Shown here: positions 9,894 to 56,240 of the stretch, one piece after another
How the letters are laid out: every line of letters starts with the position of its first letter
How positions within the stretch are numbered: the stretch's first letter is position 1
NCBI RefSeq assembly: GCF_028009165.1
Contig: NC_079246.1
Span: forward strand, 3,410,001-3,474,000
Source of the DNA: Akanthomyces muscarius
Lineage: Eukaryota; Ascomycota; Sordariomycetes; Hypocreales; Cordycipitaceae
Length of the DNA: 64,000 nucleotides
Reading direction: 5' to 3'
Notes under the pieces: model-generated
The model's database searches: none
What the model was told of the DNA's origin: nothing
The model's input: the letters and a program-made list of their open reading frames with translations, nothing else
Made by a program: the position numbers and the translations under genes

Positions 9894-11832
9894 CTAGTAT
9901 GCCTTGGAAGCGACGCGGACCTTGACCTCGGTCCAGTAGCTCTCGCGCTTTGCCGCTCTCAGCCTCTTTCCCCACCAAATCATGGGCAGAAATGTGCTGC
10001 AAATGGCGAGCGCGACAAAGGCGACACTGATAAAACAATTCTGCAGGCCGAGGCCGTCGAGCCAAGGCGTGATGCCATAGCCAATGGCAAAGCTCATAGT
10101 GTTGCGGATGAGGATGACGCTGACGAGGGCGTCGCCCGAAATCTCGCGAAACGAATCGACCAGGTACGCAACGGCAATGGTCAAGCCGGCGCTGCTGCAA
10201 AAAGCCAGGAACGCCATGGCGACGAGCAGCCCGAACCAGTGCACGCCATGCGCGGCCTGTATATTTGTTAGCAAGGTGAAAATGTTGAAAGGTCGAAGTG
10301 GGGAGAACGCACGCCGACACCCCAGAGAACAAGACCGGCCGGGGCGAGGATGGCCGTTGCGGCAAAGAGCCATAGGCGGTGCTCGGGCTCGTAGATGCCG
10401 CCGTTGCGTCGGGCCATGCGCAGCACGAACCAGTCGGACGCGACCCCCGAGTACGCAGCTCCGATTACAGTGCCAATGACACACGCCAGATATGACAGGC
10501 CGACGATACTGGGGCGGAAGTGGTACGGCGCGCCGCCGAGGATGATGGACGACGTGGCGTTGAGGATGTTGAACCAGATGAGATATGTGCCGTATGCGAA
10601 GCCTGCGTAGAACACCGTCGGCCACGTCAGAAACCGCAAGCTCTGCCATGCGCGCAAATGCATGCGAAACGGCTGCTTCTCTCCGGTGTTGAAGAGCGCG
10701 AGCTTCTGCACAAACGTCTTCTCGGGGGGATAGTCAAGCTCGCCGTCGCGATCTGCTGCCTCATCAACCGGCATTTTGTCCACCTCCGGCGGCGACGACT
10801 TGCTTGGCTCATAGACTACGCCGACACTCGCGCGCGCATAGTTGGTCTCCTCCATGAAGAGGAAGAGGAATACGAAGCTGGCGGCGCAGAACAGGCCCAT
10901 GATGTAAAACGGCCAGCGCGGGCCGAGGCCGTCGTTGATGAAGCCGCAGAGGACGGGCGCGAGGTAGTTGGAGCCGGCAAGCATGAGCGCGTACCAGCCC
11001 ATGTAGGTGCCACGCTCGTGGGCAAAGTAGATGTCAGTGATGGACGTCTCGGGCAGGGACTCGATGGGGGACGCAACGAAGCCGGTGACAATGTTGCGCG
11101 CGATCCACTGGCCGCCGCCTTGGGCATGGGGGCTCCAGAACGAAACGGCCTGAGACGATGTTAGAACGAGGAGAGACAGTCGTGAATAAGGATGGTATTG
11201 AGGCTTACGACCATGCCCAGCATCGAGGCGAGATAGGTGAAGCGCTTGCCGTACTGCAGCGCAAAGGGTTGCCAAAACAGCAGCGACCAGCCCAGCAGCA
11301 GGAACATGTAGCCCGTGCCGGCATTCAGATCGCCCACTGTTTTTGTCAGTTAAGTGAGTCAAGCAAGTGCAGGCGACGGCAGGGAATATGAATCAAGAGA
11401 GACAGGCAGGGACATCCAGACAAGGTTTTCGGGAATAAACTTACGGGTAACGCCCAGGGCACTCGACAGGGGCACCAAGACGGAATACACAACCGATAGG
11501 GCCATGCCGTTGAACCCGACATAGCTGCAACATAAATAAGCTTTTCGGGCCCTACGGACTGTTTGGATATTATAAGAAACTTACACCATGAGACAGATGA
11601 GATGCAGCCGCTTCCGACCGGCCGACCAGTTGAGCGGGTCGTTGGGATCCCGCGACGGCGTCGGGATGAGGATAATGTCGCGGCTGGAGCCCGCGTGCCG
11701 TGTTGCCTTTGTGTGCTCCAGGTCGACCAGATGCACGGTGCCAGGAATCTGCGATTCGTCAATTTCCATCGCGGAGGTGGCTGGCGGCGTCGCGCCCGCA
11801 GCGCCTTCTACCGCAGCTGCGTCAACGCCCAT
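9894..11832 (-). CDS. MFS transporter, HOL1/DHA1-like
   Basis: Twelve-helix major facilitator transporter of the plasma membrane. Five exons: 11832-11585, 11524-11445, 11336-11209, 11149-10313, 10256-9894; all junctions keep frame and introns are 56-108 bp. Product 551 residues. The cytoplasmic N-tail carries the motif [20 protein letters not shown] that marks the fungal HOL1-like group (polyamine, histidinol or drug/H+ antiporters). Helix 2-3 loop [13 protein letters not shown] and [24 protein letters not shown] in helices 4-5 are also typical. A charged central loop with [27 protein letters not shown] separates the two six-helix halves. An ATG at 11958 is in frame but would add a leader unlike the family, so 11832 is preferred. 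Substrate unknown. Confidence 0.88.
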
Positions 11833-31683: not shown

Positions 31684-32641
31684 GGCTGCGGCTTTTTGAT
31701 CTTGGGGGTCGGTTGTCGGGTGGGAGAAAGAATGGACTCGGTCGGGGATGGTCAAGAAAGGAGAGCGAGCGAGAAGAGTTCACGCACGCTGCACGCTTCC
31801 TTGCTGTTTGTCTAGAGAGCGACGAAAAGAGCGAGAGAGGGGTTGGGGCGGTAAAGAGTGAATGACGCACAAAGGGGATTGACTGGGGGGTCCGGGCGAG
31901 AAGAACACCTTCTTAGTGAAAAGATGGCAGACTCCGCGAGATTATTTGCGACCCGTACGTTGGTTTGTGAGTGAAGAAGAAGAAGAGGGAAACATCTAGA
32001 CGCGGGCGGCCATCGTGCACCTTTATTATGCCACACAGGCCACCAACAAAGGCAGCCACACCTCAGCCACGCCAATTACGATGACAGTTGGGCAGAGCGG
32101 GGTCGATGTGCCTGGCTCAGCGGATTTTAGTGGCTGGGCCGGGCCGCCAGGGCCGTTGTTAGGGGGGTTAGTCGGAGGTTTAGGCCACAACAGCGCTGAA
32201 AGTGGCGTCGCCTGGGGTAAACTCCACTGTATTAGGTGCCGAATTGGGTTGCAGGTTCTCGGTTGCCTTGCATTCCAGGGACCGAGGCGGGATGGCTTCA
32301 CTTAAGAAAGGGAAAAATCACTAAAAGAAGTACTGTATTAGGACAATTCTTTTACATAAAATCTAATAAAAAATACGCTTCTTGCTTCTTTTGCAGTGCA
32401 GACACTATCAAATCAGTGCTTTCCTGTCTGCCCAACGATCCTTCAGCCAACACGTGATGCACCGTCTAGCCTCAGTGGTATATGCAAACGCCAACAGTCC
32501 TTGAATCTTCTCTTCCAATTAATAGCCCGACGACTCTTGACACGCCCAGCTTACCAGGCATGCCTATTTTCCTGTTTTATGCTAACAGTCCTTGAAGTTG
32601 ATGCTCCAATTAACGACCCGACAACACCCAGCACGCCCAGC
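31684..32641. other. Intergenic region with imperfect direct repeat
   Basis: 958 bp between BTB and transporter genes. It holds the BTB promoter and, near 32491, a diverged copy of the transporter 3' end (listed separately). No gene supported. Confidence 0.5.
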
Positions 32642-32656
32642 TTACCAGACATGTCC
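32491..32656. repeat. Imperfect direct repeat duplicating the transporter 3' end
   Basis: Bases 32491-32566 and 32581-32656 align without gaps over 76 bp, sharing aacagtccttgaa, ctccaattaa-type, cacgcccagcttaccag and catg segments. The second copy covers the stop codon and last codons of the MFS gene (minus strand). Differences are scattered, so the event is not recent. Confidence 0.75.
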
Positions 32657-34357
32657 CTTGGCCTGCTTGATGCCCTTGACGTTAATGTTACGCCACATCA
32701 GCACCGCAACAAGCCCAAGTGCCCAGACACCGGTGGCAGTAGCCAGCATACGCAGAAAGGCATCGCTGTACGCGTGCTGAATTGCCATTCGAGTAGGCGA
32801 CCCGATTGGGTACGACAGCTGCGTGTTAAGGTCGGCATAAATCATGACGAGATTGGGCAGATCTTCTTCGGGTAGATACTCGAGCAACTTGTTGGGCAGC
32901 GTGTTTGTCCAAATAGCAGACGCCACCGTGAAACCAATGGCGCCGCCAATATTGCTAAACATGCCCAGCACCGCAAGACAGACGGCGACGTATTGATGAG
33001 CACCCGCTGCCAGCATGGCAATCTCGTCACACACAATAATCGTGCCCGCGGCAATACCGATGAAGATGAGGCACATGACAATGTACCCAATGTTGCCGTC
33101 TGCGCCGCGGAAATGGATCATCAGCCCGAGACCAAAGGCACTCAGCGGCACGCCGACAAACAGCGTCGCAGGCTTGAACTGGCCCGTCTTGTGGATAATG
33201 GCACCCGCGACCACGCCAAAGATGACAGACACGACCGAGTATGTCTGCACCACGTACGTCGAATTGTCGATGCTCAGCCCCTTGACCACCTGCAGGTACG
33301 ACGAGAAATAGGCGTTCCAGGTCGAGTAGCTGAGGAACAAGACCAAGGACAAGATGCACGCGCCAGACACGGTGCGGTCAAGGAGCAGCGAGTACGGGAT
33401 GAGTGTCACCGAAGCAAAGAAGCGTTCCCAGACAACGAAGGCGACAATGAGCAAGAAGCCAATAATCAGCATGCTCAGGACAAGCGGCGAGGTCCAGCCC
33501 CGTGCCTGCATCGTGTAGAGGTTAAAAGGCAGCAGAAACAAGGCGACGCCGGCCGAGAGAAGAACCAAACCAACCGCGTCGAATTCACGGCAATAGTGCA
33601 GGAATGACTGCAGCGGCGATCGGCCACTTTCGGATTTGGCGACGAGGCCCAGGCGCTTGGCCTTGAGGAAGTTGGAGACCAGGATGCCGTACAGCGGCAG
33701 CGTGATGCACGGTACCATAATGGTAAACATGCCAAACGCCCACCTCCAGCCCGGCCCCTTGACGAATCCCGACGCAATAGGTCCGGCCAGGAAGCCTGTA
33801 AACAGGTTGGGCGTGCTGACAATGGCCTGCATGAAGCCTCGGTTCTGCAGCGTCGACGTGTCCGCCACAAACACCGACAGGCTGTACTGGATGCCGTTGT
33901 TGCCGACCGTCTGGAAGACTTGCGCCGCGGCGTAGGCCTCGACATTGTTGCATGCCGCCATCATGATTAAGCCGACCGTCCCCAGTACGATACAGAAGAG
34001 GTAGCCCTGTGGACGGCCAAACACGTCGAGAATCTTGGCAAGCGTGAGGTTGGTCACGCCGCCAATGACACTACTCAAGATGCCGACTGTTGGCGTAAGT
34101 GAATGCTGCGCAAAGGCCGACGTGACGTAGGGTGTAAGAGCGGCGGTGGTATTCCCCAGCATGCCCTCGACGCAGTATGTTAGCCAGATGAGGACGTAGG
34201 CAATGATCAAAATGTTCTTGCTCCACGCGACGGTCGTGGCTTCGATATTCTTGACACCTGCTTGCGTACTGCTGCCGGCCGCGACGCTCGCCGCATCATC
34301 AGCACTCTCGGCGGTTGCGTCGACGCGCATCTTGGCGTCGTCTGCGTGGATGGACAT
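32642..34357 (-). CDS. MFS transporter, siderophore-iron (SIT/ARN/Mir)-like family
   Basis: Fourteen-helix-type MFS protein of 571 residues, single exon, ATG 34357. Similar in layout to fungal siderochrome transporters (Sit1/Arn/MirA-C): a cytosolic N-tail of about 45 residues, then ILIIAYVLIWLTYCVEGML. Next come AALTPYVTSAFAQHSL and the loop 2-3 motif LAKILDVFGRPQGYLFCIV, then NVEAYAAAQVFQTVGNNGIQY. PYSLLLDRTVSGACIL and SSYLQVVKGLSIDNSTYV correspond to conserved central segments of the family. The late extracytoplasmic loop has KLLEYLPEEDLPNL. It follows the isocyanide-synthase gene on the same strand, 593 bp downstream of that stop. Context suggests transport of the isocyanide product or its metal complex, but this is inference; a plain siderophore importer is equally compatible with sequence. 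Confidence 0.88.
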   Translation of the reverse strand: MSIHADDAKMRVDATAESADDAASVAAGSSTQAGVKNIEATTVAWSKNILIIAYVLIWLTYCVEGMLGNTTAALTPYVTSAFAQHSLTPTVGILSSVIGGVTNLTLAKILDVFGRPQGYLFCIVLGTVGLIMMAACNNVEAYAAAQVFQTVGNNGIQYSLSVFVADTSTLQNRGFMQAIVSTPNLFTGFLAGPIASGFVKGPGWRWAFGMFTIMVPCITLPLYGILVSNFLKAKRLGLVAKSESGRSPLQSFLHYCREFDAVGLVLLSAGVALFLLPFNLYTMQARGWTSPLVLSMLIIGFLLIVAFVVWERFFASVTLIPYSLLLDRTVSGACILSLVLFLSYSTWNAYFSSYLQVVKGLSIDNSTYVVQTYSVVSVIFGVVAGAIIHKTGQFKPATLFVGVPLSAFGLGLMIHFRGADGNIGYIVMCLIFIGIAAGTIIVCDEIAMLAAGAHQYVAVCLAVLGMFSNIGGAIGFTVASAIWTNTLPNKLLEYLPEEDLPNLVMIYADLNTQLSYPIGSPTRMAIQHAYSDAFLRMLATATGVWALGLVAVLMWRNINVKGIKQAKGHVW

Positions 34358-34591
34358 GGTCGTCAATGGTTACGCAAAGCTAGTGGAATACAAGAAAAAA
34401 AAAATTGATAAAGGGCAAACAGGAAAAGGGAAGCGCCCGAGAGACAACTCAGCCGGGGGTGGCGTCGTTTATGAACCCCAAGGTCCCCGAAAATGAGAAG
34501 GTTCTCTTTCAACACACGGGCCTAACCGCTTACCAGGGGGGCGTGCAGATGCACCAACGGGTGGAGCGAATGTATGGCCCAATCTCGGAAA

Positions 34592-34649
34592 CTTGCTCAA
34601 TTTTCTGCAAGCCTCGTTTTTAGGAGCTGTTGTCATCGAAACTTGCTCA
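34592..34649 (+). promoter_or_regulatory. Paired CTTGCTCA motifs, candidate copper-response elements
   Basis: GAAACTTGCTCA occurs twice (CTTGCTCA at 34592-34599 and 34642-34649), exactly 50 bp apart, 235-292 bp upstream of the transporter ATG. Yeast Mac1 binds TTTGCTC(A/G); the repeated element differs only in its first base. Role is inferred from the motif and the neighbouring gene. Confidence 0.35.
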
Positions 34650-34699
34650 CTTTTTGTGTGCCGCGCTAGCCTTGTCCCCATCAGCTCGTCTGGGCCCTG

Positions 34700-34745
34700 C
34701 AGGTCGTACAATAGATAACGGCCCCGTGGTCTATTGTACGACCTG
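34700..34745. repeat. Perfect 15-bp inverted repeat (46-bp palindromic element)
   Basis: caggtcgtacaatag at 34700-34714 is the exact reverse complement of 34731-34745; the spacer is 16 bp. It lies 343-388 bp upstream of the transporter ATG and about 205 bp past the isocyanide-synthase stop. Could be an operator or an mRNA 3'-end hairpin. Confidence 0.7.
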
Positions 34746-34950
34746 TGTTTCTCAGCCCCGGGGACCCTTGCGGGCGTTTCACGCGGACTGGAGACTGTGT
34801 GCTTTTCCAACACTACTGTAGGTTCGAGAGGATATAAATTCTCAATCTAGCGCCTGAGGCTGTTACAGGCTGCGCTATGTGACTTACACGAGAGCCCATG
34901 ACACGGCTTCCTCGTCGTTCTATGTACGCTATGAAAATGCTAATGCTCCA

Positions 34951-37900
34951 TTACCAAGGCGAAACATCTACGACCTTGGCATATTGGCTGAATTCTTCGT
35001 CTTGCTTGAAAAAGTCAAGTTCCTCCGGGAACGTGCCCAGGACAAGTTCTACAGCGCCGTCCTTTTTCATGGGCGAAATGATCAAGAAACGGAATCGGCC
35101 GTGGGCGCGCACCAGCTGCGGCCGCATAGTCTCGGGCGACCCATTGTTCCCAAACAGCTTATTGCCGAAATTAATCTCGCTCATCTGGAACAGGATAAGG
35201 TTCGATATCATGGCGTGCATATGATTGAGACCCATGTTGGCCGTCGAGAAACGGGTGTGATCGGGCAGCGACTGCAAGATGGTAAAGGCATCGTGCACCA
35301 AGGATGGTGTGATGCGGGCTGCCGTGTCGCGTAGCACCTGCGAGATACGGCCGAGGCTTGTTTTTGGCGCACACAATTCCTCTGCCGACAGTACGGAGCG
35401 ACTCATGATGAGCATGCTGCCCATATAAGTCTCGGGCAGCAGCGAAGAAAAGTGCGCGCGACCATCTGTCGGCGATTCCAAGATGGACACGTCTTGCTCG
35501 TCGGACGTGTCATTTCCAGTAGCCTTTGCCACATGACGCCGGGCGCGAATGGCTGATCGCCAGAAAAAGGCCTGGACAATGTCGCTGACTGAAGCAGAGG
35601 ACCCTTTGGTTGCGGGATCGGCCAGCACTTGCTTCTTGAGCTTCCGGATATTTTCTGCCGAGATTTCTACGACAGTCGTATTCATGCACCGCTCGGCGCG
35701 GGGGAGCGGCCAGATGGAATGCAGTTTGTACTTGGGCGGCGGAGGCAGATCACCCGCTGTCGGGATATACTTGCTGGGGGGCGCATCCTCGGCCGGCTGA
35801 AAGGGGAGGAAGCCCCAAGTGCCAGGGTCGACTTCATCAGCAGACTTGGTCCAGCCTTCTTGGTGGTGAATGATCTCTGGCAGGCTGTGATTGAAGCTGT
35901 CGGCATCGAGCCACGAGCACGTAGCGGTCGCGTCGCCTTGCAGGTAGCGGCAGTTTTCCGCCCACGCCTTGAGAGCAATCATGACACCCATGCCATCCAA
36001 GCAGCAGTGATTCATGTCCACAGCCAGAATACAGCCGCCCTTGACAAAGTTTGCCTGCGCAATGACAATGTCGGTGGGTAAGTTAGGAAAGGTGTCCTGC
36101 TGGAGTATGATTTCGTCGCGGAACAAGGACGGAACAAAGTCTTTTTCGCGCAGCTCGGCAAATGTGGGCAACGTGTCGGAACAATCTTTGTAGATGAGCC
36201 GGTTGTGCACCGAAGACGCCATGTGAAGAGGCGGAATCGTCACGCACAGGTCTCCCCTCGTGTAGCCAATCTCGTGCTCAGAGCAGGGCACCATCTTGCC
36301 GCCCAGCGCGGGAATCAAGTCCATGCTGCGATCTAAGCCCTTGGACAGGTTGTCAAACACTTGCTGGAAGTCGACACCGTCGGCCAGAGGAAAGTAGAAG
36401 ACGAGGCCCATGTAGTGATTTGGGTTGACGTAGTCCATGGCGTTGAGCTTGAACGACTGTCGCGCTTGGTGCTTTGCCATAAGGCGCTGCAGCTCGCTCA
36501 TCTGGCCGTTTCCAGCTTGCTCTTTGATTTCCTTGGACAGCTCGAGCAGGACCGACGAGAAGCCGCCCAACGTAGGATTCGCATAAAGCTGTCGCGCGCT
36601 CAGACGATCAGCCAGGCCAGTGACGATGCGAAGCGTCTTGATCGCAGCAAAGACGGCCAACGAGTCAAACCCGAGCTCAAACAGGTTTGCGTCGAGAGGC
36701 ACTTCTCGCACTTCGGCCAGGTATGATGCAAATAGCTCGCGAACATCATGCTGAATCGACTCTACAGAGCTCAAATCCACGTCAAACACGGGAATATCGC
36801 TGTTGCGGGAGCTATAGAAGCGCTCAATATAGTCCTCGTACACTTTCAGCGTCGCAGGCCGCTTGACGGTGCCCTTGTCCGCTCTGACGAATGGTTTGTC
36901 CGCCTCGGCAAAGGCGATAAAGTCACGCAGCAGCTGGTTCTTGTGGCGCATCTGCGCGTTGGCCTCTTGCACCGTGTCCCAGATGCTGTCGAGGATCTCC
37001 TCCGTCTTGCCGTTGGGGTCCTTGAGCTCGATGAGCAGCGCGGCCTGCGGCTTGCCGGTGCCGATGACCAGACAGCCGTTGATGGCCGGGTGCGTGGCAA
37101 TGAAGGCCTCGGTCTGCAGCGGCGAGATCTTGTAGCCGTTGGACAGCACCACCAGGTCGTCGTTGCGGCCCTTGAACGCCCAGAGATACGACTTCGTAGG
37201 GTGCTGCATGTACAGGTCCTTGAAGTTGATGGACTGCTGCTCGGGGAATGTATGGTAGATGCCCTGGAACAGCGACGCATGCTGCTCGTCACGGTGGATC
37301 CAGTGCTCGTAGGTGTCCTCGTCGAGCTGCTTGAACTCGAAGCCGGAGTACGGGTGGAAGGCGAACCAGAACCAGTCCTCGCGCGGCGGCACCAGGTTGC
37401 CGATGAAGAGCCCCTCGGTGGTGCCCGTCAGGTTGAGCACGCGAATCACCTTGTTGGCCTTGCCGGCGCTGACGGGACTCACGGGCCCGCCGGACGCGCA
37501 GATGAACTTGGACGGCGCCAGCTTGGCGAGCACGTCGGGCGTCTCGCCGACCTCGTCCGTCAGCGAGGGCACCATGCTCCAGATGTCTATGCGGGCCTGC
37601 TCGGCGAGGGCCTCGACGAGGGTGATGTTGGGCAGGATGTTTACGGGGCCCATGATGCAGTGCAGATTGAAGAGCGCGGGGAGCAGAATGTTCATGATGA
37701 TGCCGGCGCCGTGGCTCATGGGGAAGGACGAGTAGATGCGGTCGTGCGCGCACCAGTCAGTTGTCCACGGAAGAAGGTCATGATCGCCGTCGACGCGCGG
37801 CAGCAGACGGATGGCGTCCATGGTACCAATGAGCCCGTTGGACCAGGGGATCGGCTTAGGGATGCCGGTGCTGCCAGAAGTGTGCAGGAAGCAGAAGGGG

Positions 37901-39845
37901 TCTGCGGAGGCCTCGGCAAAGGTCTTGCTGTATGGGTAGGCGGGGGTATTGGCGGAGTCGAGGAGCGTGTCGAGAGAGGGTAGATCAAGAATGGTCATGG
38001 GACGCTCTTTGAGAACGTCCTGTACGAGGGGAACCAGCGGCGCGTCGCCAGCTTTGGCCCATATGTGGCAGTTGAGAGTTTCGAGGACCGCGAGGGCACC
38101 TTGCGTGCTGTTCTTTGGTGAAAGAAAGAGGGCCTAAAGGTGTCAGCTTGTAGATTGTATAGTGGGTGAGCATTTGACTTACAGCGTAGCCTACTTTAAC
38201 ACAAGCATACGTCAAAAGAATATGGCGAAGATCATCTACTCATGTCAGTATGCGGTTGACAATGTGACCAAAGCTGGAACGTACGGGGTCCAATATATCC
38301 GATCGGCTGGATGGCAGCTGGCTTCCCAACCTTTTCTTGCAGCCACCATGCCGTCTTGTCGACCGCGTTGGCAAACTGTCTCGCCGATACATCCCGGAAC
38401 TCGAGCACATTCTTGACCATGGACGACAGCGAGAACAAGCTCTGCTCTGGATGCGAAGCGGCCAGCTCGTCGATAATCTGCGGTAGCAGTCGTCTTCCAT
38501 AATCAGGACTGCGGCCATCCTTTGCGGCCGAGAGCTCATTCTCCGACGTGTAGCTGCCCGCCGGCGTCGTGCAGCCACTGATGCCCAGTCCAAGGACACG
38601 CGGCGACGCGCCCGGCGTAACTTGGCCCTCCCTTGACGATAGCAGGCTCGTCGTTGGCGACGACGACCCCGCTGACGAGGGGCTAAACTTCTTGGCCGCG
38701 GGCATAAACGCCGCCCACGTCTCGCTGATGCTGGGCGGCGAGTCGGCGCCGCGGGGCTTCTCCTTGAAGTGGCTCGGGCGGCCATTCTCGTGCACGAGCT
38801 CGAGGCGGTCGTCCTTTTGAAACTCGCCCATGGGCGCGCTGATCCACTCCCCGTCGGCGAGCTGCGCGACGCTGCAGTGCCAGGGTGTAGTGAAGCCCGT
38901 CTGGGTGTTGAGCAGGCTGATGGAGACTTTGTGCTCGCCGAGGGACTCGTGGATGGAGAGGCGGAGATGGGTTGGGAATGCTTTCTTGACCGCACCGGCA
39001 AAGGCCTGTTCTGATTAGCATGGATATAAAAGGGACTGTGTGCAATGAACACTCACGTAGCCGCGTCGGAGCATCTGCTTGGCCAAGTACTTTACATCGC
39101 GCTTGTACGCGCGGTTCGTCCGGTCTTTGTCGGGCGGGAAGATGTGCTTGAGGTCCGACTCCAGAAAGCGGCAGTAGCCGAGGTAGGTGAGCTTGGTATC
39201 CGGGTTGTCGACGATTTCCTGGTCAATGTCGAGGTCGTCACGGCCGTGCTCGTTGAGCAGGATACGGCGCATGTTGGTGCAGTTGGCGACGTAGGTGATT
39301 TCGCGCAGTTTCTCGGGCAGCTCGCAGTCGACGAGGTCGCGGATGCGCGCAAAGGAAATGTGGCTGAAGCCCTTGGCTTGGGCCATTCTGCGCAACGCCT
39401 CGCCATACTGCCACGTCTCGCTATCAGAGATGGATAGCAGGTCTTGTGGTGCCTTCCGTTAGCAAACCCCTTCGAGCTATGCGTGTAGGTGGGATGTCGA
39501 CAACGCACCGTTGTAGGTCATGCCGTCGGAGATGATGGTCACTCGGGCGCCTGGAGAATACACCTCGCGGATACGCCTGCACATGTTATTCAGTCGGGCC
39601 AGCGCCAGCTCCTCGGCCTTGTCGGGGAGAGACCCAAGGACCTTGTACTGCTTGTTGGCCGACTTGAAGGGGAACGAGGGCAGACATGTCTGGACCTCTT
39701 GCTGCGCCGCGACGAACGCGTCAATGACTGCTAGAAAGGACGGTGTGCCGGCGACGATGCGCTGCGCCGAGTCGTCAAACTTGTTCAGGGAAAATTCCGT
39801 GATGATGTCGAGAATGGACTGCGATACGCTCTTTTGCGCTGCCAT
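34951..39845 (-). CDS. crmA: CrmA-type isocyanide synthase-NRPS-like hybrid (ICS-A-T-acyltransferase)
   Basis: Multidomain enzyme that should make an amino-acid-derived isocyanide, then activate, tether and transfer it. Five exons: 39845-39509, 39442-39057, 39005-38285, 38235-38183, 38133-34951; introns 49-66 bp, all in frame; 1559 residues. Domain 1 (about 1-330) is a DIT1/PvcA-type isocyanide synthase: IISDGMTYNDLLSISDSETW (104-123), YGEALRRMA, LRLSIHE...ISLLNTQTGFTTPWHCSV. A Ser/Pro-rich linker follows. Domain 2 (about 435-930) is an adenylation domain: YIGPHDLRHI, A3 core HTSGSTGIPKP (584-594), GRNDDLVVLSNGYKISP, terminal KGTVKRP. Domain 3 is a carrier with FELGFDSLAVF, phosphopantetheine Ser990. 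Domain 4 (about 1050-1559) is an HxxxD acyltransferase (HCCLDG, H1208/D1212). The order equals Aspergillus fumigatus CrmA, a copper-starvation-induced valine isocyanide producer. Orthology is inferred from architecture. Confidence 0.9.
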
Positions 39846-42417
39846 GGTCAGAGACGCCGCGTAACGCAGACGATGAGAAGCTGTAGCACGCTATATCTAA
39901 AGAAGAGGGGGAGGAACTAGAGGAGTAAATCGAAAGGTACTCCAGCTAGCTCAGAGGCTTGGATCTCCTGGTATGAAAAGCAAAATTTGGGGCGCGGGGG
40001 AGACGTCGAGGGCTGGCTCGAATTTTAAAGTCTTGGGCATGGCTGGGGCGCTAATCAAAGCCTTCGTTGCTGCCAACTAACGCAGGCACATGGAAATAAT
40101 GGACTAGAATGAAAAGATGCGAGAGAAGAATAACACAATTTCAGGCAAGGGAAAAAAAACCTGCGCGCGGCAAGCCGACAGACAAAATCTGGGACGAGCC
40201 TGGCATCATTTGTGTCGGCAACTATACAAATGGGGTCGCAAGAAGAGTAGTCTCGTCTGGGCTTCTGGAATTCACCACTATTTTCTTACACGTCCCTATT
40301 TTTCCTGCTGGACAAGCCTCGCGGCGGAGCACATGGCAGACAAGGGGGGAGGGGGTGTGTGCAGAGCGAGAAGCAAGGGATAATTCCATTTCATTGTTGG
40401 TGGCCGGCGGGCCGACTGAGCACGTTTGAGCCAGAAAGCGACACGCCCTCGGCGCGGCCCTAGTTTCTTTCCTGGCCTTTTTGGCTGAAGTCTTGTTCTG
40501 TTCGGCATTGATGTTCGGCCGCGGACCTGCATCACGGGCACCAGACCAAACATGGAAAGTGTCAAAAACAGACGCAAGGCCCGAAGAAGAGTATGACAGG
40601 CTAACGATTGAGAGCCTGTTTCGCAAGAGTGGTCGAGCCTGGCAGAGAGGATCACGACGTCGTGACCGTGACCATCCTGTCTCTGTTGCCCAAAGTAACA
40701 CGACCACGTCGACGATTCGCCACTGTGTGAGGCGGCAGCGAAGTGCTCTCTCGGAGGAATTATCAGAAGAATCCCGGCGTCGCATTCTGGACCGTTTCTT
40801 CGACCGGGCAGCTGAAGAGCCGTGGAGAATGAGGCTGCAGGAAGTGGTGGGGTGCAGGTCCGCTGCCCGTTGGGCTTGGGCTCCTCGGCGGACGTTCTCA
40901 TTGGGTAATAACATGGGAAGATTGCCTATTCCCATATTACAGGTATATTATATGTTTGGTGATTTTCGCTGCTAGCGGGCTGTGGCCGCCAGGAGCTTGT
41001 CCGGTAGGTTCGGAATAACGTGTGCGGTCCTGGTAAGCACGTATTACCCGCCCCGTGTAAGCCACGCCAAGATCATCTAACGGGTTCAAGACACTTTTCT
41101 GGCCTGTCGCGCGCACTCCATACCGCTCTTCGATGGTTCAATAATAGCCAAAGCCGGGGTCTTCGGGTGGACTTCTGTCTCTGTCTTTGTGCGGCTGAGT
41201 GTTTTGCGGGCTGGCTATTATTATCCATTTTAAGTTCTGATGGCGTTGGCGGCAGGAGTTCCCAGCAAGTTCACTTTACCCCAGAGAGCACATATCGGGC
41301 CACGAAAGAGCAGATGTTTCTTATCGCCATTTTCTTCTCAATCACTCTCAAACTGTACTCCGGTGAGTCAAAGGAGCAAGACAAGAAGACGTTTCCAGTT
41401 CTTATACTTTGCTGGGATATTTTGGGACCGCGATTATGAATCTGCTCGGCCGGTTGCTTTTCGTGGGTTTGAATCTGTCTCAAACCTGCTCACGCTAGGC
41501 GGAACCAGGTATGGCTAGCGCAAGCCTCGTCAGATCCCTGGCCGGGACCCAATTCGCCCCCGGTCCAGCCCAACTTGAGATGAAGCCATAACGTGGACGA
41601 AACTTGCTCTGAGGCCCTTTGAGAGGGGCGCAGGTACCGAGGTGAGGCGGCGCCGTCGGCGAGAGGCTGAAAGCGTCCGTCTGTGCAGAACAGTGCGACA
41701 CACCAATGACCGATGACCACATCTGTGAGGCACAGCTGGCGGTTTGTCTTGGTCATACGCTTGGCCAACAAGAGTGCAGGAATTAGTCATGGTAGCTGAG
41801 ACTGTAGAGTACAACCCGGATGGGCAGGCTCCAGGGCGAGGCACAGGCTGCTTTTGACTATTTGAATCGAGCAGGGTGTGCAATTTTCGCAAATATCATA
41901 AGCGCTAGCCCTGCGCCCTGCGCAACCGAAATAAAATGACTACCAGGATCAGACTCGTCTATCAAATAGGCTACTGCTGTCGCGCATGGTTGCAGTGCAG
42001 GTCTGTATCGCCCACGGCAGCAGCCTACCGGTGTTCACTTAATCTATCGTGAGAAAGGAACTTGATTAAATACTGCTTTATTTTTACTACAGCCCTACCA
42101 TTATTAGCCATCTCGATAGTAGACTATACCTGTTAGTTGAATCGAGGCGCTCGTGCGAAAACGTGCTGGCGACTTCCGTATCAGGATCATGCCGAAGCCG
42201 GTGTGCTGATGATATTTCTGGACTGTCGTAACCGCAACGTAGCCTCACCGAACCAGCACCATTGCGAAATAACGAACAAAAATATCCCGAGACAGAGATT
42301 CGTTTGTAGGAGAATCCGCCAAAGTCTACAGGAAGAATTAATAGAGCGCCGCTGCCACATTCGCCGCTTTGTTGAGAACCGCCAGCCACCTGCACCGACG
42401 CGCCTCACGTATGTCCA
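39846..42417. other. Long gene-free region upstream of the isocyanide-synthase gene
   Basis: About 2.6 kb with no supportable gene; open frames on both strands are short and lack family features. It holds the promoter of the isocyanide-synthase gene (candidate TATA GATATAGC near 39890 on the minus strand) and of the plus-strand gene at 42418. Confidence 0.5.
40326..40424 (-). promoter_or_regulatory. Two near-matches to the MacA copper-starvation motif
   Basis: Read on the minus strand, TGTGCTCC is at 40333-40326 and CGTGCTCA at 40424-40417. Each differs by one base from TGTGCTCA, which I recall as the A. fumigatus Mac1/MacA site. They lie 480-580 bp upstream of the isocyanide-synthase ATG. 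Chance matches of 7/8 are not rare, so confidence is limited. Confidence 0.3.
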
Positions 42418-51047: not shown

Positions 51048-52367
51048 GTTGGCGTCGGCCAGGTATTGCTGGTACAATGCCTGATTGCCCAAGAAAAAGA
51101 CGAACGTAGTGAAGGCAAAAAGAAAAAAAAAAGAACAGAGAGCGACAGAATGAAAATGGAACAGAATGCTTTCAGTCTTGGGGAAAGCGAAGGGAAACGA
51201 GGCTTCAAAACAAGACAGTGCCATTTCCCCCAGCATCGCAGCGTAGACTCGGCCTATGCCCAGTTCGACATGGCCCGAACCCAGCTTCGCTAGTCGTTTC
51301 CGTGCAGCCACAACGTCTGGAGGTTACACAGGCATGGATATTGTCAGGATTCTCTAGACCATTGGGCTGACCGCAATTTTAGCCAATGGTATCCTCTTGA
51401 TAGATTGTTCTGAGCTGGAGTCGCAGGATCCCCGGAGACTAACTTGGTGTAAGTAGGCGGATGCCCCCTGTGCTGGCTTAGCCTGGCTCCGCCAATCCAC
51501 ACCCTCAATACCGCAGCTGGAGGGTATTATGGCCGCATGCTTTTTTGTAACCCTGAAAGGGAAAATTACTAGTCGTTGACCGAGCTTAGACGAATGCAGG
51601 CAGGCCCTTGTCGACCGGCACTTGATGTACAGAAAAGGAGAACGAGCAGCCTTTCTGGAATCGCTCTATCGTGTGGTGGTATCGTTTCTCGGCTGCATAG
51701 AAGGAGAAGAAAAGAGAGAAAGGAGAGAGAAAATGCAAAGTAAAACCGCTTCTCCCCAAAGCTAGGACATTGAAATGCAGGAACTTCTTTCAGGGCGCAT
51801 GATTTCGGCAATACCAATGAGCCTATCCCAATTTGTAAGCGCCGATATTACTGGCAGCGAAGCGTTGGGGGTCGGCGCCGTTTCGGCTCAGTATTCGGAC
51901 TTTTACGCCTTAATTCGTGCATGGATTCTCCAAGCTCCCTGGTTAAACGTCCCGCATTGGGTGCGAACATATCTCACAGCATTTTTACGCGAGACCCTCG
52001 CGTACCTGCCAAGACGAGCTCGGGGACTTATGGAGACTTGTGCCGGTGTCGTATCGGCGAACGCCAAGACGGGCAGGGCCCGATCAGTCTAAATCGGCGG
52101 TCCTGCTAGAGCCTAGGGGATATAACGATATCCTGTACAATTTGCCTGTCGACCTGACGAGGGTGAAAGGATAATGCCTGCCGCTCGCCACAAGGCAGGT
52201 ATATGGTAAATGGCTGCACTTCTTTGTATGTGATTCTACTTCTGCTCCCATTGTCCGCTCCGACACACCAGCATATGGCAACTCTTTCTGCCGCACAAGC
52301 AGCAATCTTGAACATTTTCTTCATCACTTTTATTTTGGCTCTCTAAAGGGCCATCGAAGAACAGACT
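51048..52367. other. Divergent promoter region of secreted protein and chitinase
   Basis: 1.3 kb; no gene supported. A GATATAACGATATC stretch near 52120 lies about 240 bp before the chitinase ATG. Confidence 0.5.
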
Positions 52368-55300
52368 ATGCGGCCTGTCAATGGCTCGGCCGTCTTGGCA
52401 GCATTGGCTTTTGCCTCTCTGTCTACAGCTTTGACAGAGAGCTATTCCGGAGACTACCCTGACAATTGTCCTGGGCTGTGCGAAAGGCTAGGCCCCGACC
52501 CTAGCAAATGGACACAATTGCATCGCCTGGACGAGCTGTCCAGCTGCAACCAGAGCGTCATCTTTGACCTCAACGTTCACAACTCGGTGGACGACCCCAA
52601 CACTGTTCTCACTATTCGCGCCTGTGTGTCCACTGGCAATGAGAGCTACGATGCTCACTCCAAGGTTCTTGCGAGGGATGATTCTACGTCACAAGACTCC
52701 TCAGTTCAAGAGTCTCTCGTAATCTCGCAAGGATGTGGAGCCAAGACAGTCACCTCGTCTCTCGCTCCATCGGTCGGAGGCAAGCTCACCATGAACTCAG
52801 GAAAGACTCCCAAGGCAGGTGATATTTCAGATGCCACGCAACAACTGACGAGCTTTATGAAAAAGGGTTCTCAGTGTGGAAGGACAATATTGTTCGCCAA
52901 GTCTGGTTCTGCCATCGTCGGTATGCACTCGGGAGCAGACGTTGCCAAAAGCTCGGCGCCCGGATTGCTGGACGCATTCAGCAAGCAAATTGAGCAAGGC
53001 GGCTCGTCACTGCAGATTTGCTCGTCAAAAGCCGCCCCGTCGACCTTTGGTGTCATTGCGACTCATTTTGAAGATCTTGCGGCAGCTCAAGCCGCTGTCA
53101 AGAGCTGGAACGATGGCGACTGTCTCGACGGCGCCAGTGCGGCCTCCACGATGAGTGTCGACATGCTTGTCTCTCTTGCAAGTGGAAACGCCACCGCCGA
53201 ATCAAACACCACGATGAGCTCCAACAGCACCATTGTTCGAAGAACCCTTGACGTGCTGCCAAGGGCGGAATGCAAGACTGAGCAGTGCCGAGGTGTCGGC
53301 GATGGCTGCCCCGCCATTGCTGGCCGTTGTGGCATTTCCGTCAAAGATCTCCAGAAATACAACGGCGGCGCTGATGACTTCTGCAATAAGCTCATGCCCA
53401 AACAGCATGTGTGCTGCGGCCCAGGCACTCTCCCCGATTTCAAGCCCAAACCACAGCCGGACGGAACATGCTTCACTTACAAGATCAACCCTGGTGACAC
53501 CTGCTACGCCATTGCAGACGGCAACTATCTCAAGCAAGACGATATCGACGGTTTCAACAAGAAAACCTGGGGCTGGGTTGGCTGCGGCAATCTTCAGCTC
53601 GGTCAGCTTATTTGCCTAAGCAGTGGCGACCCGCCCATGCCTGCGCCCGTCGAAGGCAATGCATGCGGTCCCCAGGTGCCCGGAACCAAGAAGCCACCAA
53701 AGGGCACCGACTTGTCCGACTTGAATCCATGCCCGCTAAACGCGTGCTGCGATGTATGGGGCTTCTGCGGCACTACTGATGACTTCTGCACGAAGACTCC
53801 AGCTGATACCGGCGCCCCTGGCACCGCGAAGCCCAACACCAATGGCTGCATATCCAACTGCGGTAGAAAACTCGTCAACAACGACAAGGCCCCTGCTTCT
53901 TACATGAAAGTTGGTTATTACGAGGCCTTTGGTATGAAACGCGACTGCATGAACATGGAGGTTACCAGTATCGACGGAGACGAATACTCACACATCCACT
54001 TTGCCTTTGCGACCGTCACGACGTCCTGGGGTGTCGACATCTCTGACTCCAAGGAGCAATTCGACAAGTTTGTCAAAATAGATGGCAAGTTCAAAAAGAT
54101 TCTGTCGTTTGGCGGATGGGACTTTTCGACGAAACCCGAGACTTATCAACGCTTCCGAGATGCCACGAAGCCTGAGAACCGAGGCCCATTTATTGACAAC
54201 CTGATCAGCTTTTTGGGCAAGAATGCTATTGATGGTCTTGACTTTGACTGGGAGTATCCTGGAGCCCCAGACATCCCCGACGTGCCGCCTGGTGGAAGTG
54301 ACGAGGGCAAAAACTACCTAGAGTTTCTGAAAGCCCTCAAGGCCAAGATGCCGAGCGGCAAGTCTGTTTCCATTGCACTGCCGGCGTCTTACTGGTACTT
54401 GAAGCAATACCCTGTCGACAAGATGGGAGACGTTGTCGACTACTTCATCTACATGACGTATGATTTGCACGGACAGTGGGACGTCGGCAACAAGCACGCT
54501 ATTCCCGGCTGCGAGGGTGGGAATTGTCTTCGGTCGCACATCAACAAAACCGAAACAATGGATTCGCTCATAATGATCACCAAGGCTGGTGTAGAAGCGC
54601 GCAAAGTGGTCGTGGGAGTAAGCAGCTATGGCAGAAGTTTCCGCATGCAGGATCCCTCGTGCTCAGGCCCCATGTGCAAGTACACGGGGACGCGGAACCA
54701 ATCGGAGGCATACAAGGGAGAATGCACACAAACATCGGGCTACATTTCCAACGCAGAAATGAACGAGATCATCGAGTATGGTGGATATTCTACCGTCAAG
54801 TCCTCTTACGACAAAGCCTCCGACTCCAACATTCTGATGTACGGAGACGGCAAAGCGGTTGACTGGGTGGCGTACATGGACGACGACGTCAAAAAGTCGC
54901 GCCAGGACTGGCTCAAAGGTCTCAATTTTGCCGGCACCTCGGACTGGGCGGTCGATCTCAATGAGTACACCATCGACGTTGGCAGCGATTCGGGCTTCAA
55001 AGACTTTGCTCTCAGTGATCTGGACGACATTGAATGCAGCGGGGACTTGAACCCGGGCAACATGGGAGATCTTGTGGACAAGGCCGACAAGCTTCCTGCG
55101 CGCTGCACCGCCATGTTTGCACTCGATATTCTGTACGGCACGTTGGAAGATGCCCTCCAGCTGTTCGACGTCAACTCGAATGGCTATGACGACAAGTTTG
55201 GCTATTACGAGGAGTGGGTCAAGGAAGGCATCAACAGCAAGCTGGATACATTCATGGACTTTCGAAAGGACATCAAAGACGCCAAGGGAGTCAAGTATTG

Positions 55301-56240
55301 CGACTGCAAGTACGAGTACGGCAATCAGAAGGGCCAGTCATCGTGTGCCGGCATGCCACACTTCTGGGACGCCAACTACTACTCGTACACGGTCGAGTAC
55401 ATCATCAAAGACGAAAAGGGCTTCTACGACGCCCTGTCAACCGAGACGGGCATCGACAAGGACTGGATCAGCTGGGAAACAACGACAGATCGGTCTTTCT
55501 GTGCGGATCCTGGCGACGTGCCGCTTCGACCCGGTGGCGGCGGCGTCAGCCCGCCCTGCCGACACCTCACCCACACGCTCGTCAACTACCCGCGCAAGGG
55601 CCCCGACTCCAAGATCAAGGTCGGCAACCCCAAGAAGATGATTGAGGCATCGATGCCCAACATCACGGCGCTGCAGGACTCGCTGCTGTCCAGCTACGCG
55701 TCCCTGTCGTTTGGCGTCTACGGCGACGACGCGGCCAACGCGTCCGACACGGACCCGGTCGTCGCGTACGCCATGCCCGTGTTCCAGCTGCAGACAGCCA
55801 TTGAGAGCATGAAGGACATCAAGGACATTGGCGAAAAGGCGCGCGAGGAGAAGAAGAAGAAGCTCATCATGACCATTCTCACGTTTGTCTTCATGGCCAT
55901 TCCCTTTGTCGGCGAGGCGCTGGGGCCCATCATCGGCAGCGCGGCGGCGATTGCGCGCATCGCACTCATCATTTCGGAGGTGGGCAACGCGGCCCTCACC
56001 GTGGCGGACATTGTAGAAGATCCGGCCTCGGCGCCCTTTGCCATCCTGGGGCTGATTGCTGGCGTGGGCGGCGGCACGAGCAAGGTGACCAAGGAGGAGG
56101 CGCTGGAAAAGGCGTCGTCGGCAAGGGGACTGATGAAGGCGGATGACCTGGCCAAGTTTCCGGCCAGGTTTAAGGAGCTGGATGGGTTTGTGCAGAAGAT
56201 TGTGCAAAAGGCAAAGTCGCCGTCGTGCAGTATTAAATAG
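52368..56240 (+). CDS. LysM/chitin-binding GH18 chitinase, subgroup C (killer-toxin-like)
   Basis: Very large extracellular chitinase, 1290 residues, single exon. Signal peptide MRPVNGSAVLAALAFASLSTALT. Domains in order: N-terminal region of about 280 residues with scattered cysteines; a LysM-like unit (CRGVGDGCPAIAGRCGISVKDL, about 307-350); a second, clearer LysM (CFTYKINPGDTCYAIADGNY, 368-418); a hevein-type chitin-binding module with CxxxxCC...CG (about 434-480). The GH18 barrel (about 510-850) follows, with LSFGGWDFS and catalytic DGLDFDWE (D622, D625, D627, E629). The C-terminal 400 residues include CDCKYEYGNQKGQSSC and a hydrophobic segment LIMTILTFVFMAIPFVGEAL (about 1165-1185). This layout is that of fungal subgroup C chitinases, related to the alpha subunit of Kluyveromyces zymocin. 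All catalytic acids are intact. In other fungi such genes help in mycoparasitism or self/non-self wall interactions; here that is inference. Confidence 0.93.
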   Translation: MRPVNGSAVLAALAFASLSTALTESYSGDYPDNCPGLCERLGPDPSKWTQLHRLDELSSCNQSVIFDLNVHNSVDDPNTVLTIRACVSTGNESYDAHSKVLARDDSTSQDSSVQESLVISQGCGAKTVTSSLAPSVGGKLTMNSGKTPKAGDISDATQQLTSFMKKGSQCGRTILFAKSGSAIVGMHSGADVAKSSAPGLLDAFSKQIEQGGSSLQICSSKAAPSTFGVIATHFEDLAAAQAAVKSWNDGDCLDGASAASTMSVDMLVSLASGNATAESNTTMSSNSTIVRRTLDVLPRAECKTEQCRGVGDGCPAIAGRCGISVKDLQKYNGGADDFCNKLMPKQHVCCGPGTLPDFKPKPQPDGTCFTYKINPGDTCYAIADGNYLKQDDIDGFNKKTWGWVGCGNLQLGQLICLSSGDPPMPAPVEGNACGPQVPGTKKPPKGTDLSDLNPCPLNACCDVWGFCGTTDDFCTKTPADTGAPGTAKPNTNGCISNCGRKLVNNDKAPASYMKVGYYEAFGMKRDCMNMEVTSIDGDEYSHIHFAFATVTTSWGVDISDSKEQFDKFVKIDGKFKKILSFGGWDFSTKPETYQRFRDATKPENRGPFIDNLISFLGKNAIDGLDFDWEYPGAPDIPDVPPGGSDEGKNYLEFLKALKAKMPSGKSVSIALPASYWYLKQYPVDKMGDVVDYFIYMTYDLHGQWDVGNKHAIPGCEGGNCLRSHINKTETMDSLIMITKAGVEARKVVVGVSSYGRSFRMQDPSCSGPMCKYTGTRNQSEAYKGECTQTSGYISNAEMNEIIEYGGYSTVKSSYDKASDSNILMYGDGKAVDWVAYMDDDVKKSRQDWLKGLNFAGTSDWAVDLNEYTIDVGSDSGFKDFALSDLDDIECSGDLNPGNMGDLVDKADKLPARCTAMFALDILYGTLEDALQLFDVNSNGYDDKFGYYEEWVKEGINSKLDTFMDFRKDIKDAKGVKYCDCKYEYGNQKGQSSCAGMPHFWDANYYSYTVEYIIKDEKGFYDALSTETGIDKDWISWETTTDRSFCADPGDVPLRPGGGGVSPPCRHLTHTLVNYPRKGPDSKIKVGNPKKMIEASMPNITALQDSLLSSYASLSFGVYGDDAANASDTDPVVAYAMPVFQLQTAIESMKDIKDIGEKAREEKKKKLIMTILTFVFMAIPFVGEALGPIIGSAAAIARIALIISEVGNAALTVADIVEDPASAPFAILGLIAGVGGGTSKVTKEEALEKASSARGLMKADDLAKFPARFKELDGFVQKIVQKAKSPSCSIK

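What the first reader, a model, noticed from the sequence alone, without database searches (positions are those of the whole stretch)
32642..39845. CrmA-type isocyanide synthase hybrid next to a siderophore-type transporter: a probable copper-linked isocyanide cluster
Splicing five exons gives a 1559-residue ICS-adenylation-carrier-acyltransferase protein. Sequence shows DIT1/PvcA marks, an A3 core, a carrier serine and HCCLDG in one chain. Established knowledge: this order is that of A. fumigatus CrmA, induced by copper starvation and making valine-derived isocyanides. Inference: the same-strand MFS gene of the siderophore-transporter family handles the product or its copper complex. If so, this is a compact two-gene metallophore-like locus.
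Basis: partly seen in the sequence, partly recalled or inferred. Interest (0 to 1): 0.9.

Follow-up and report, generated by a model that had tools for sequence, protein, structure and literature searches.

The report
Copper-responsive fungal isocyanide gene pair
A fungus close to Akanthomyces (moulds that often live on insects) carries a known type of two-gene unit, an enzyme predicted to make a reactive valine-derived isocyanide plus the transporter that goes with it, and its promoters carry the same short DNA signal as several of the fungus's copper-starvation genes.

Summary
Five minus-strand exons give a 1559-residue ICS–adenylation–carrier–acyltransferase protein, gaplessly colinear with an Akanthomyces lecanii protein (98.8%) and 63% identical to an A. 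fumigatus protein of CrmA length. It falls in the CrmA clade. The MFS gene downstream is a single exon of 571 codons.

It also precedes 2 of 4 Ctr, 2 of 15 ferric-reductase and 1 of 3 Fe/Mn-SOD loci, and none of 47 other MFS loci.

Three separate genes (some lichens, Plenodomus), two (here) and one make a series.

So this is a crm-type locus reduced to crmA plus a crmC-like gene: a new member of a known kind. A metallophore role, the cargo and the transport direction are unproven.

The parts
34951..39845 (-). crmA-like gene, five exons (39845-39509, 39442-39057, 39005-38285, 38235-38183, 38133-34951 with stop), 1559-aa ICS-A-T-acyltransferase
   Evidence: splice and translation; Pfam; gapless 98.8% match to A. 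lecanii P0121 and 63% to A. fumigatus P0149
38285..39845 (-). exons 1-3: isocyanide synthase domain DIT1_PvcA (residues 41-311) and the start of the adenylation part
   Evidence: Pfam; PF05141 search of the genome; ICS tree
34951..38133 (-). exon 5: most of the adenylation domain, carrier (LGFDSL), both transferase parts (NHCCLDG)
   Evidence: Pfam; aligned marks; A-T-transferase tree
32642..34357 (-). MFS transporter gene (crmC-like), single exon, 571 aa, 14 long helices in the model
   Evidence: homologues; match to fused transporter domains; model
34588..34599 (+). candidate Mac1/copper-starvation site GAAACTTGCTCA, 231 bp upstream of the MFS ATG
34638..34649 (+). second GAAACTTGCTCA, 281 bp upstream of the MFS ATG
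40417..40428 (-). candidate Mac1 site CAAACGTGCTCA about 0.57 kb upstream of the synthase ATG
34700..34745 (.). perfect inverted repeat (16-bp arms, 14-bp loop) between the synthase stop and the MFS promoter sites; role unknown
   Evidence: no other exact copy of the arm in the genome, ten at two mismatches

Best explanation
The locus is a crm-type isocyanide cluster in a fungus of or near Akanthomyces (Cordycipitaceae; inferred from protein identity), reduced to a two-gene core, crmA and a crmC-like MFS gene. Proposed working: under copper starvation a Mac1-type copper-fist activator binds TGCTCA-core sites upstream of both genes (sites shown; binding inferred). The ICS domain turns L-valine into 2-isocyanoisovaleric acid (crmA-dependent in A. 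fumigatus in print; inferred here). The adenylation domain activates the acid, the carrier serine holds it and the C-terminal transferase passes it to a hydroxyl acceptor, most likely a polyol such as mannitol (inferred; PMC9381783 leaves the acyltransferase open). The 14-helix MFS protein then moves that small ester, or an intermediate, across a membrane; export is my first guess, uptake of the product or its copper complex the second. That the MFS belongs to the pathway is well supported by linkage and fusion; what it moves is inference.
For: Domain order and full-length identity. Placement with CrmA for ICS and A-T-transferase. Listed MFS relatives share species and contig length with listed synthase or ICS entries in 14 cases; in the 9 of these 14 where tags of both are visible they are one or two apart. 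Four of the 120 listed CrmA relatives carry an MFS domain, 65, 63, 62 and 49% identical to this MFS over 543-573 columns; the best own-genome paralogue matches at 47% over residues 154-563 and 54% over 56-153. Motif: 2 copies in the 593-bp MFS promoter (0.0008 expected), 1 upstream of the synthase, 51 in the genome; within 3 kb upstream of 2 of 4 Ctr, 2 of 15 ferric-reductase, 1 of 3 SOD, 1 of 3 copper-fist, 1 of 5 copper amine oxidase and 0 of 47 other MFS loci. F. oxysporum Mac1 consensus DHNTGCTCANNN and Mac1 control of its crm genes (PMC11563359, passages).
Against: No expression or chemistry data for this organism. In A. fumigatus, deleting crmB-D left crmA-dependent features unchanged (PMC9381783). 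The 12-base pattern was written after looking at these promoters and the Ctr promoters, and the reversed pattern gave 24 hits against 51, so about half of the sites may be chance; 2 of 4 Ctr loci lack an exact site. For most of the 120 listed MFS entries the tables do not show whether a synthase is linked; in C. rosea IK726 the listed MFS and synthase are on contigs of different length. A. fumigatus CrmC was not retrieved. Valine as substrate is carried over from homologues.
Confidence: 0.85

Rival explanations
1. The pair is a true copper metallophore (chalkophore) system: the isocyanide product binds copper outside the cell and the SIT-like MFS imports the complex.
For: SITs are described as about 600 aa, 14 helices and most likely proton symporters (PMC9600649, passage); the model has 14 long helices and intramembrane acids E64 and D444/E445 kept in at least 95% of the 40 aligned rows; copper-type promoter sites.
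Against: In the passages read, crm products are described as antimicrobial; among the 50 listed solved folds the nearest are 14-helix efflux pumps (EmrB, EfpA, QacA), and I saw no SIT among them, so this says little; no copper-uptake phenotype of crmC is given in the passages read.
Confidence: 0.25
2. The MFS is a general siderophore or drug transporter that merely lies next to the synthase.
For: MFS genes are common (48 loci matched this query) and some relatives are named mirB or siderophore transporter.
Against: Linkage recurs in lichens, Dothideomycetes, Eurotiomycetes and Sordariomycetes; the same MFS is fused to CrmA elsewhere; of 48 loci only this one has the motif upstream.
Confidence: 0.05
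3. The two genes are not copper regulated in this species; the sites are chance.
For: About half of all sites may be chance by the reversed-pattern control; the synthase has one site, 0.57 kb upstream.
Against: Two sites 50 bp apart in a 593-bp promoter; 4 of 21 ferric-reductase, SOD and copper-fist loci, families not used to write the pattern, have a site within 3 kb upstream against 0.09 expected, P about 2e-6.
Confidence: 0.1

Closest known systems
crm cluster of Aspergillus fumigatus (crmA-D)
   Same: ICS-A-T-transferase synthase (63% identity) and a neighbouring MFS gene of the SIT-annotated kind
   Different: No crmB (alcohol acetyltransferase) or crmD (Ctr) gene found beside it: the nearest AATase match on this contig is about 0.18 Mb away and no Ctr match lies on the contig. 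Orthology to CrmC not tested by sequence.
Mac1-controlled crm cluster of Fusarium oxysporum (FOXG_09769-09773)
   Same: crmC (putative siderophore iron transporter), a transferase-family gene and crmA lie together, with Mac1 sites (PMC11563359, passages)
   Different: There the transferase-family gene is listed apart from crmA, and a hydrolase and crmB are present; neither was found here. Sequences of that cluster were not compared.
CrmA with a fused transporter domain (Bipolaris, Lojkania)
   Same: MFS domain 63-65% identical to this stand-alone MFS
   Different: Separate genes here, with stops in all three frames between them
ICS-TauD synthase at C2:752 kb of the same genome
   Same: DIT1/PvcA domain, 40 and 60% identity in two stretches
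   Different: Has a TauD domain in the same frame and no motif within 3 kb upstream

Membership tests
CrmA family (ICS-NRPS-like) | DIT1/PvcA, adenylation, carrier and transferase domains in one chain | tested here: met
   Pfam; gene model checked against P0121
CrmA family (ICS-NRPS-like) | groups with known CrmA proteins in trees of its parts | tested here: met
   ICS tree: 16-row clade with A. fumigatus, SH-aLRT 99, holding 15 of the 19 CrmA-type rows and one single-domain Pyrenophora row. A-T-transferase tree: 32-row clade, 98. Quick trees, no bootstrap
CrmA family (ICS-NRPS-like) | makes a valine-derived isocyanide | not testable with these tools
   needs chemistry
crm cluster | induced by copper starvation through Mac1 | tested here: inconclusive
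   promoter sites present and enriched at copper genes; no expression data
crm cluster | neighbouring MFS gene of the lineage that is linked or fused to CrmA elsewhere | tested here: met
crm cluster | that MFS is the orthologue of A. fumigatus CrmC | not tested
   the CrmC sequence was not among the listed hits or otherwise in hand
crm cluster | crmB and crmD neighbours, as in A. fumigatus | tested here: not met
   none in the 18 window frames scanned and none by genome search within the window; PMC9381783 itself reports little conservation of crmB-D in distant species, so this does not exclude membership
SIT (siderophore-iron transporter) family | about 600 aa, 14 transmembrane helices | tested here: met
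   571 aa; 14 long helices in the model, mean pLDDT 76.5; shared with other 14-helix MFS families
SIT (siderophore-iron transporter) family | moves siderophores or related chelates inward | not testable with these tools
   nearest listed solved folds are 14-helix efflux pumps; direction open

The most novel reading that the evidence does not exclude
The crmC-type transporter is not an optional extra but the oldest constant partner of this synthase: ICS, A-T-transferase and transporter began as three neighbouring genes, the first two fused in most lineages, and the transporter later fused too, at least once and perhaps more often. crm would then be a make-and-move unit whose core act is transport of the isocyanide ester, possibly as a copper complex, which runs against the published remark that crmC is little conserved.
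Probability: 0.5. Interest if true: 0.6.

Novelty: new member of a known kind. Interest (0 to 1): 0.38.

Why it matters
CrmA homologues in Cordyceps and Beauveria are already in print (PMC9381783, passage), so the locus itself is expected. What is useful is a clean two-gene version with a transporter whose tie to the pathway is backed by linkage, fusion and a shared promoter site. It is a small, testable unit for the open question of what the crm transporter does in copper starvation, and the 12-base site gives a list of candidate copper-starvation genes in this genome.

Tried and rejected
Coincidental MFS neighbour: rejected. MFS and synthase as one gene: rejected here, stops in all three frames of the 593-bp gap. 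ICS of another clade: rejected. Lichen and Plenodomus A-T-transferases as ICS-free systems: first thought to part the MFS from isocyanide making; dropped where a single-domain ICS gene turned up beside them (Plenodomus lindquistii, Gyalolechia). For Loekoesia and Blastenia no listed ICS entry lay on the same contig, so there it stays open. Fusions in Verticillium albo-atrum and Trichoderma camerunense may be merged gene calls, since V. nonalfalfae and T. simmonsii, close to them in the tree, are listed unfused. A search of solved-structure sequences with the MFS found nothing. NCBIfam gave only hits below the curated cut-offs for the MFS. A possible crmB/crmD remnant at C10:877-885 kb (Ctr, ferric reductase, a frame that looks like a P450 by eye, AATase) was looked at but has no exact site and is left as a remark. 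Copper amine oxidase was looked up because a site pair lay beside it, so it is left out of the held-out test (one search had included it).
Full report
What is there. The minus strand at 39845-34951 encodes, in five exons with GT..AG introns, a 1559-residue protein with isocyanide synthase, adenylation, carrier and acyltransferase domains. It aligns without a gap to a 1559-residue protein of Akanthomyces lecanii RCEF 1005 at 98.8%, and at 63% to an A. fumigatus protein of CrmA length. Marks of each domain line up with nine relatives, with small changes. At 34357-32642 on the same strand lies a single-exon MFS gene of 571 codons. The window is part of contig C6 of a 36.2-Mb genome in 12 contigs. 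Identities of 95% (MFS) and 99% (synthase) to A. lecanii entries put it in or near Akanthomyces; the species is not settled. The only other DIT1 matches of the genome are at C2:752 kb, an ICS-TauD gene.

Family placement. The whole-protein search found 155 relatives and lists 120. By the precomputed Pfam column 21 of these 120 lack DIT1, four carry an extra MFS domain, and a few lack another domain. In a tree of the A-T-transferase part (46 of the 120 plus the window) the window sits with Cordycipitaceae inside a 32-row clade whose rows are all ICS-fused (SH-aLRT 98). The rows without ICS lie outside. Rhypophila and Apodospora, ICS-fused, also lie outside and suggest a second fusion; a Fusarium langsethiae row named partial falls among the split forms. 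The root is the midpoint, so the direction of change is inference. In the ICS tree (44 rows) the window is in a 16-row clade (99) with A. fumigatus; it holds 15 of the 19 CrmA-type rows and one single-domain Pyrenophora row, while Lojkania 2, Rhypophila, Apodospora and F. langsethiae fall outside. These are quick trees without bootstrap. [quoted passage not shown]

The transporter. A search with the MFS found 1092 relatives and lists 120. By eye I compared species and contig lengths in the listed rows: 14 contigs hold both a listed MFS and a listed synthase or ICS entry. Nine of the 14 show locus tags for both, one or two apart in each: Aphanocladium, Pyrenula, Chaetothyriales CBS 135597, Plenodomus lindquistii, Gyalolechia, Blastenia, Loekoesia, Plenodomus lingam and Polycauliona. 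The other five (Cordyceps militaris, Amniculicola, Clonostachys chloroleuca, Plenodomus tracheiphilus and one unnamed) share a contig length only. For most other listed MFS entries the tables do not tell. In C. rosea IK726 the listed MFS and synthase have different contig lengths; Clonostachys has more than one listed CrmA-like protein, so the linked one may not be shown. In Plenodomus lindquistii and Gyalolechia, ICS, A-T-transferase and MFS carry three consecutive tags. In Lojkania, Bipolaris, Verticillium albo-atrum and Trichoderma camerunense the MFS is the C-terminal part of the synthase, 65, 63, 62 and 49% identical to the window MFS. The best own-genome paralogue gives 47% over residues 154-563 and 54% over 56-153. 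In the MFS tree (43 rows) fused forms nest among stand-alone ones in two places; the Verticillium and Trichoderma entries may be merged gene calls. PMC9381783 (passages) reports the fused transporter domain and says crmC homologues were not identified in three Dothideomycetes, L. maculans among them; the Plenodomus lingam pair here (IAQ61_007041 ICS and IAQ61_007043 MFS) suggests that a relative is present. I did not have the A. fumigatus CrmC sequence, so orthology to it is open. The MFS model (mean pLDDT 76.5, 40 sequences) has 14 long helices; the nearest of the 50 listed solved folds are 14-helix efflux pumps (TM-score 0.5-0.6 by query and about 0.6-0.7 by target), which does not settle direction.

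Copper. Reading the promoters of the four Ctr loci of this genome and of the two genes here showed a shared longer form of the TGCTCA core. VAAACKTGCTCA occurs 51 times in the genome, the reversed control pattern 24 times. Two copies lie in the 593-bp MFS promoter and one 0.57 kb upstream of the synthase. Five places in the genome have two or more copies within 300 bp: two Ctr promoters, the MFS promoter, the 5' side of a copper amine oxidase gene, and a stretch 3' of a secreted protein that looks like a cupredoxin by eye but has no Pfam match. Within 3 kb upstream of the domain match a site is found at 2 of 4 Ctr, 2 of 15 ferric-reductase, 1 of 3 Fe/Mn-SOD, 1 of 3 copper-fist, 1 of 5 copper amine oxidase, 0 of 3 AATase, 0 of 1 ICS-TauD and 1 of 48 MFS loci, the one being this MFS. 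Three kb upstream of a domain match can include coding sequence. Ferric reductase, SOD and copper-fist loci were not used to write the pattern: 4 of 21 against 0.09 expected, P about 2e-6. The F. oxysporum Mac1 consensus and its targets (ctr, fre, sod3, crm genes; PMC11563359, passages) match this list. Binding and induction are untested here.

Neighbourhood. Of 18 other window frames scanned unspliced with Pfam, matches were an alpha-galactosidase, a partial MFS_1 frame (10274-11392), an amidase, BRF1, a methyltransferase, DUF1349, BTB, HET, a 3-keto-disaccharide hydrolase-like protein, a GH18 chitinase and a helicase-associated frame; seven had no match. No AATase, Ctr or alpha/beta-hydrolase was among them; a gene in short exons could be missed.

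Literature. PMC9381783, PMC5974471, PMC11563359, PMC9600649, PMC12113139 and PMC11509074 were seen as passages, PMC10153163 as abstract, passages and section 20; other papers only as search listings. I did not see the three-gene to one-gene series with this MFS as the constant partner in print; that rests on the searches in an open-licence library and on those passages. Subscription journals and supplements were not seen.

Noticed in passing
window 34700-34745: Perfect 16-bp inverted repeat with a 14-bp loop between the synthase stop and the MFS promoter sites; no other exact copy of the arm in the genome.
   Followed up: partly
window 32500-32664: The last codons and 3' flank of the MFS gene are repeated imperfectly just downstream, as if the tail of the gene had been duplicated.
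   Followed up: partly
L024 and L060 (C10:877-885 kb): A Ctr gene and a ferric reductase gene diverge, as ctr3/fre9 do in F. oxysporum, with an AATase gene a few kb on; only a one-mismatch site was seen between Ctr and reductase.
   Followed up: partly
L058 2781-2874: Three AAAACTTGCTCA copies within about 100 bp lie 3' of a secreted, cupredoxin-looking gene, not in an obvious promoter.
   Followed up: partly
L023 4321-6124: Second isocyanide synthase of the genome, ICS-TauD type, with an FAD-binding (PF01494) gene a few kb away.
   Followed up: partly
window 52347-56237: Large GH18 chitinase frame with LysM and chitin-binding domains.
   Followed up: no
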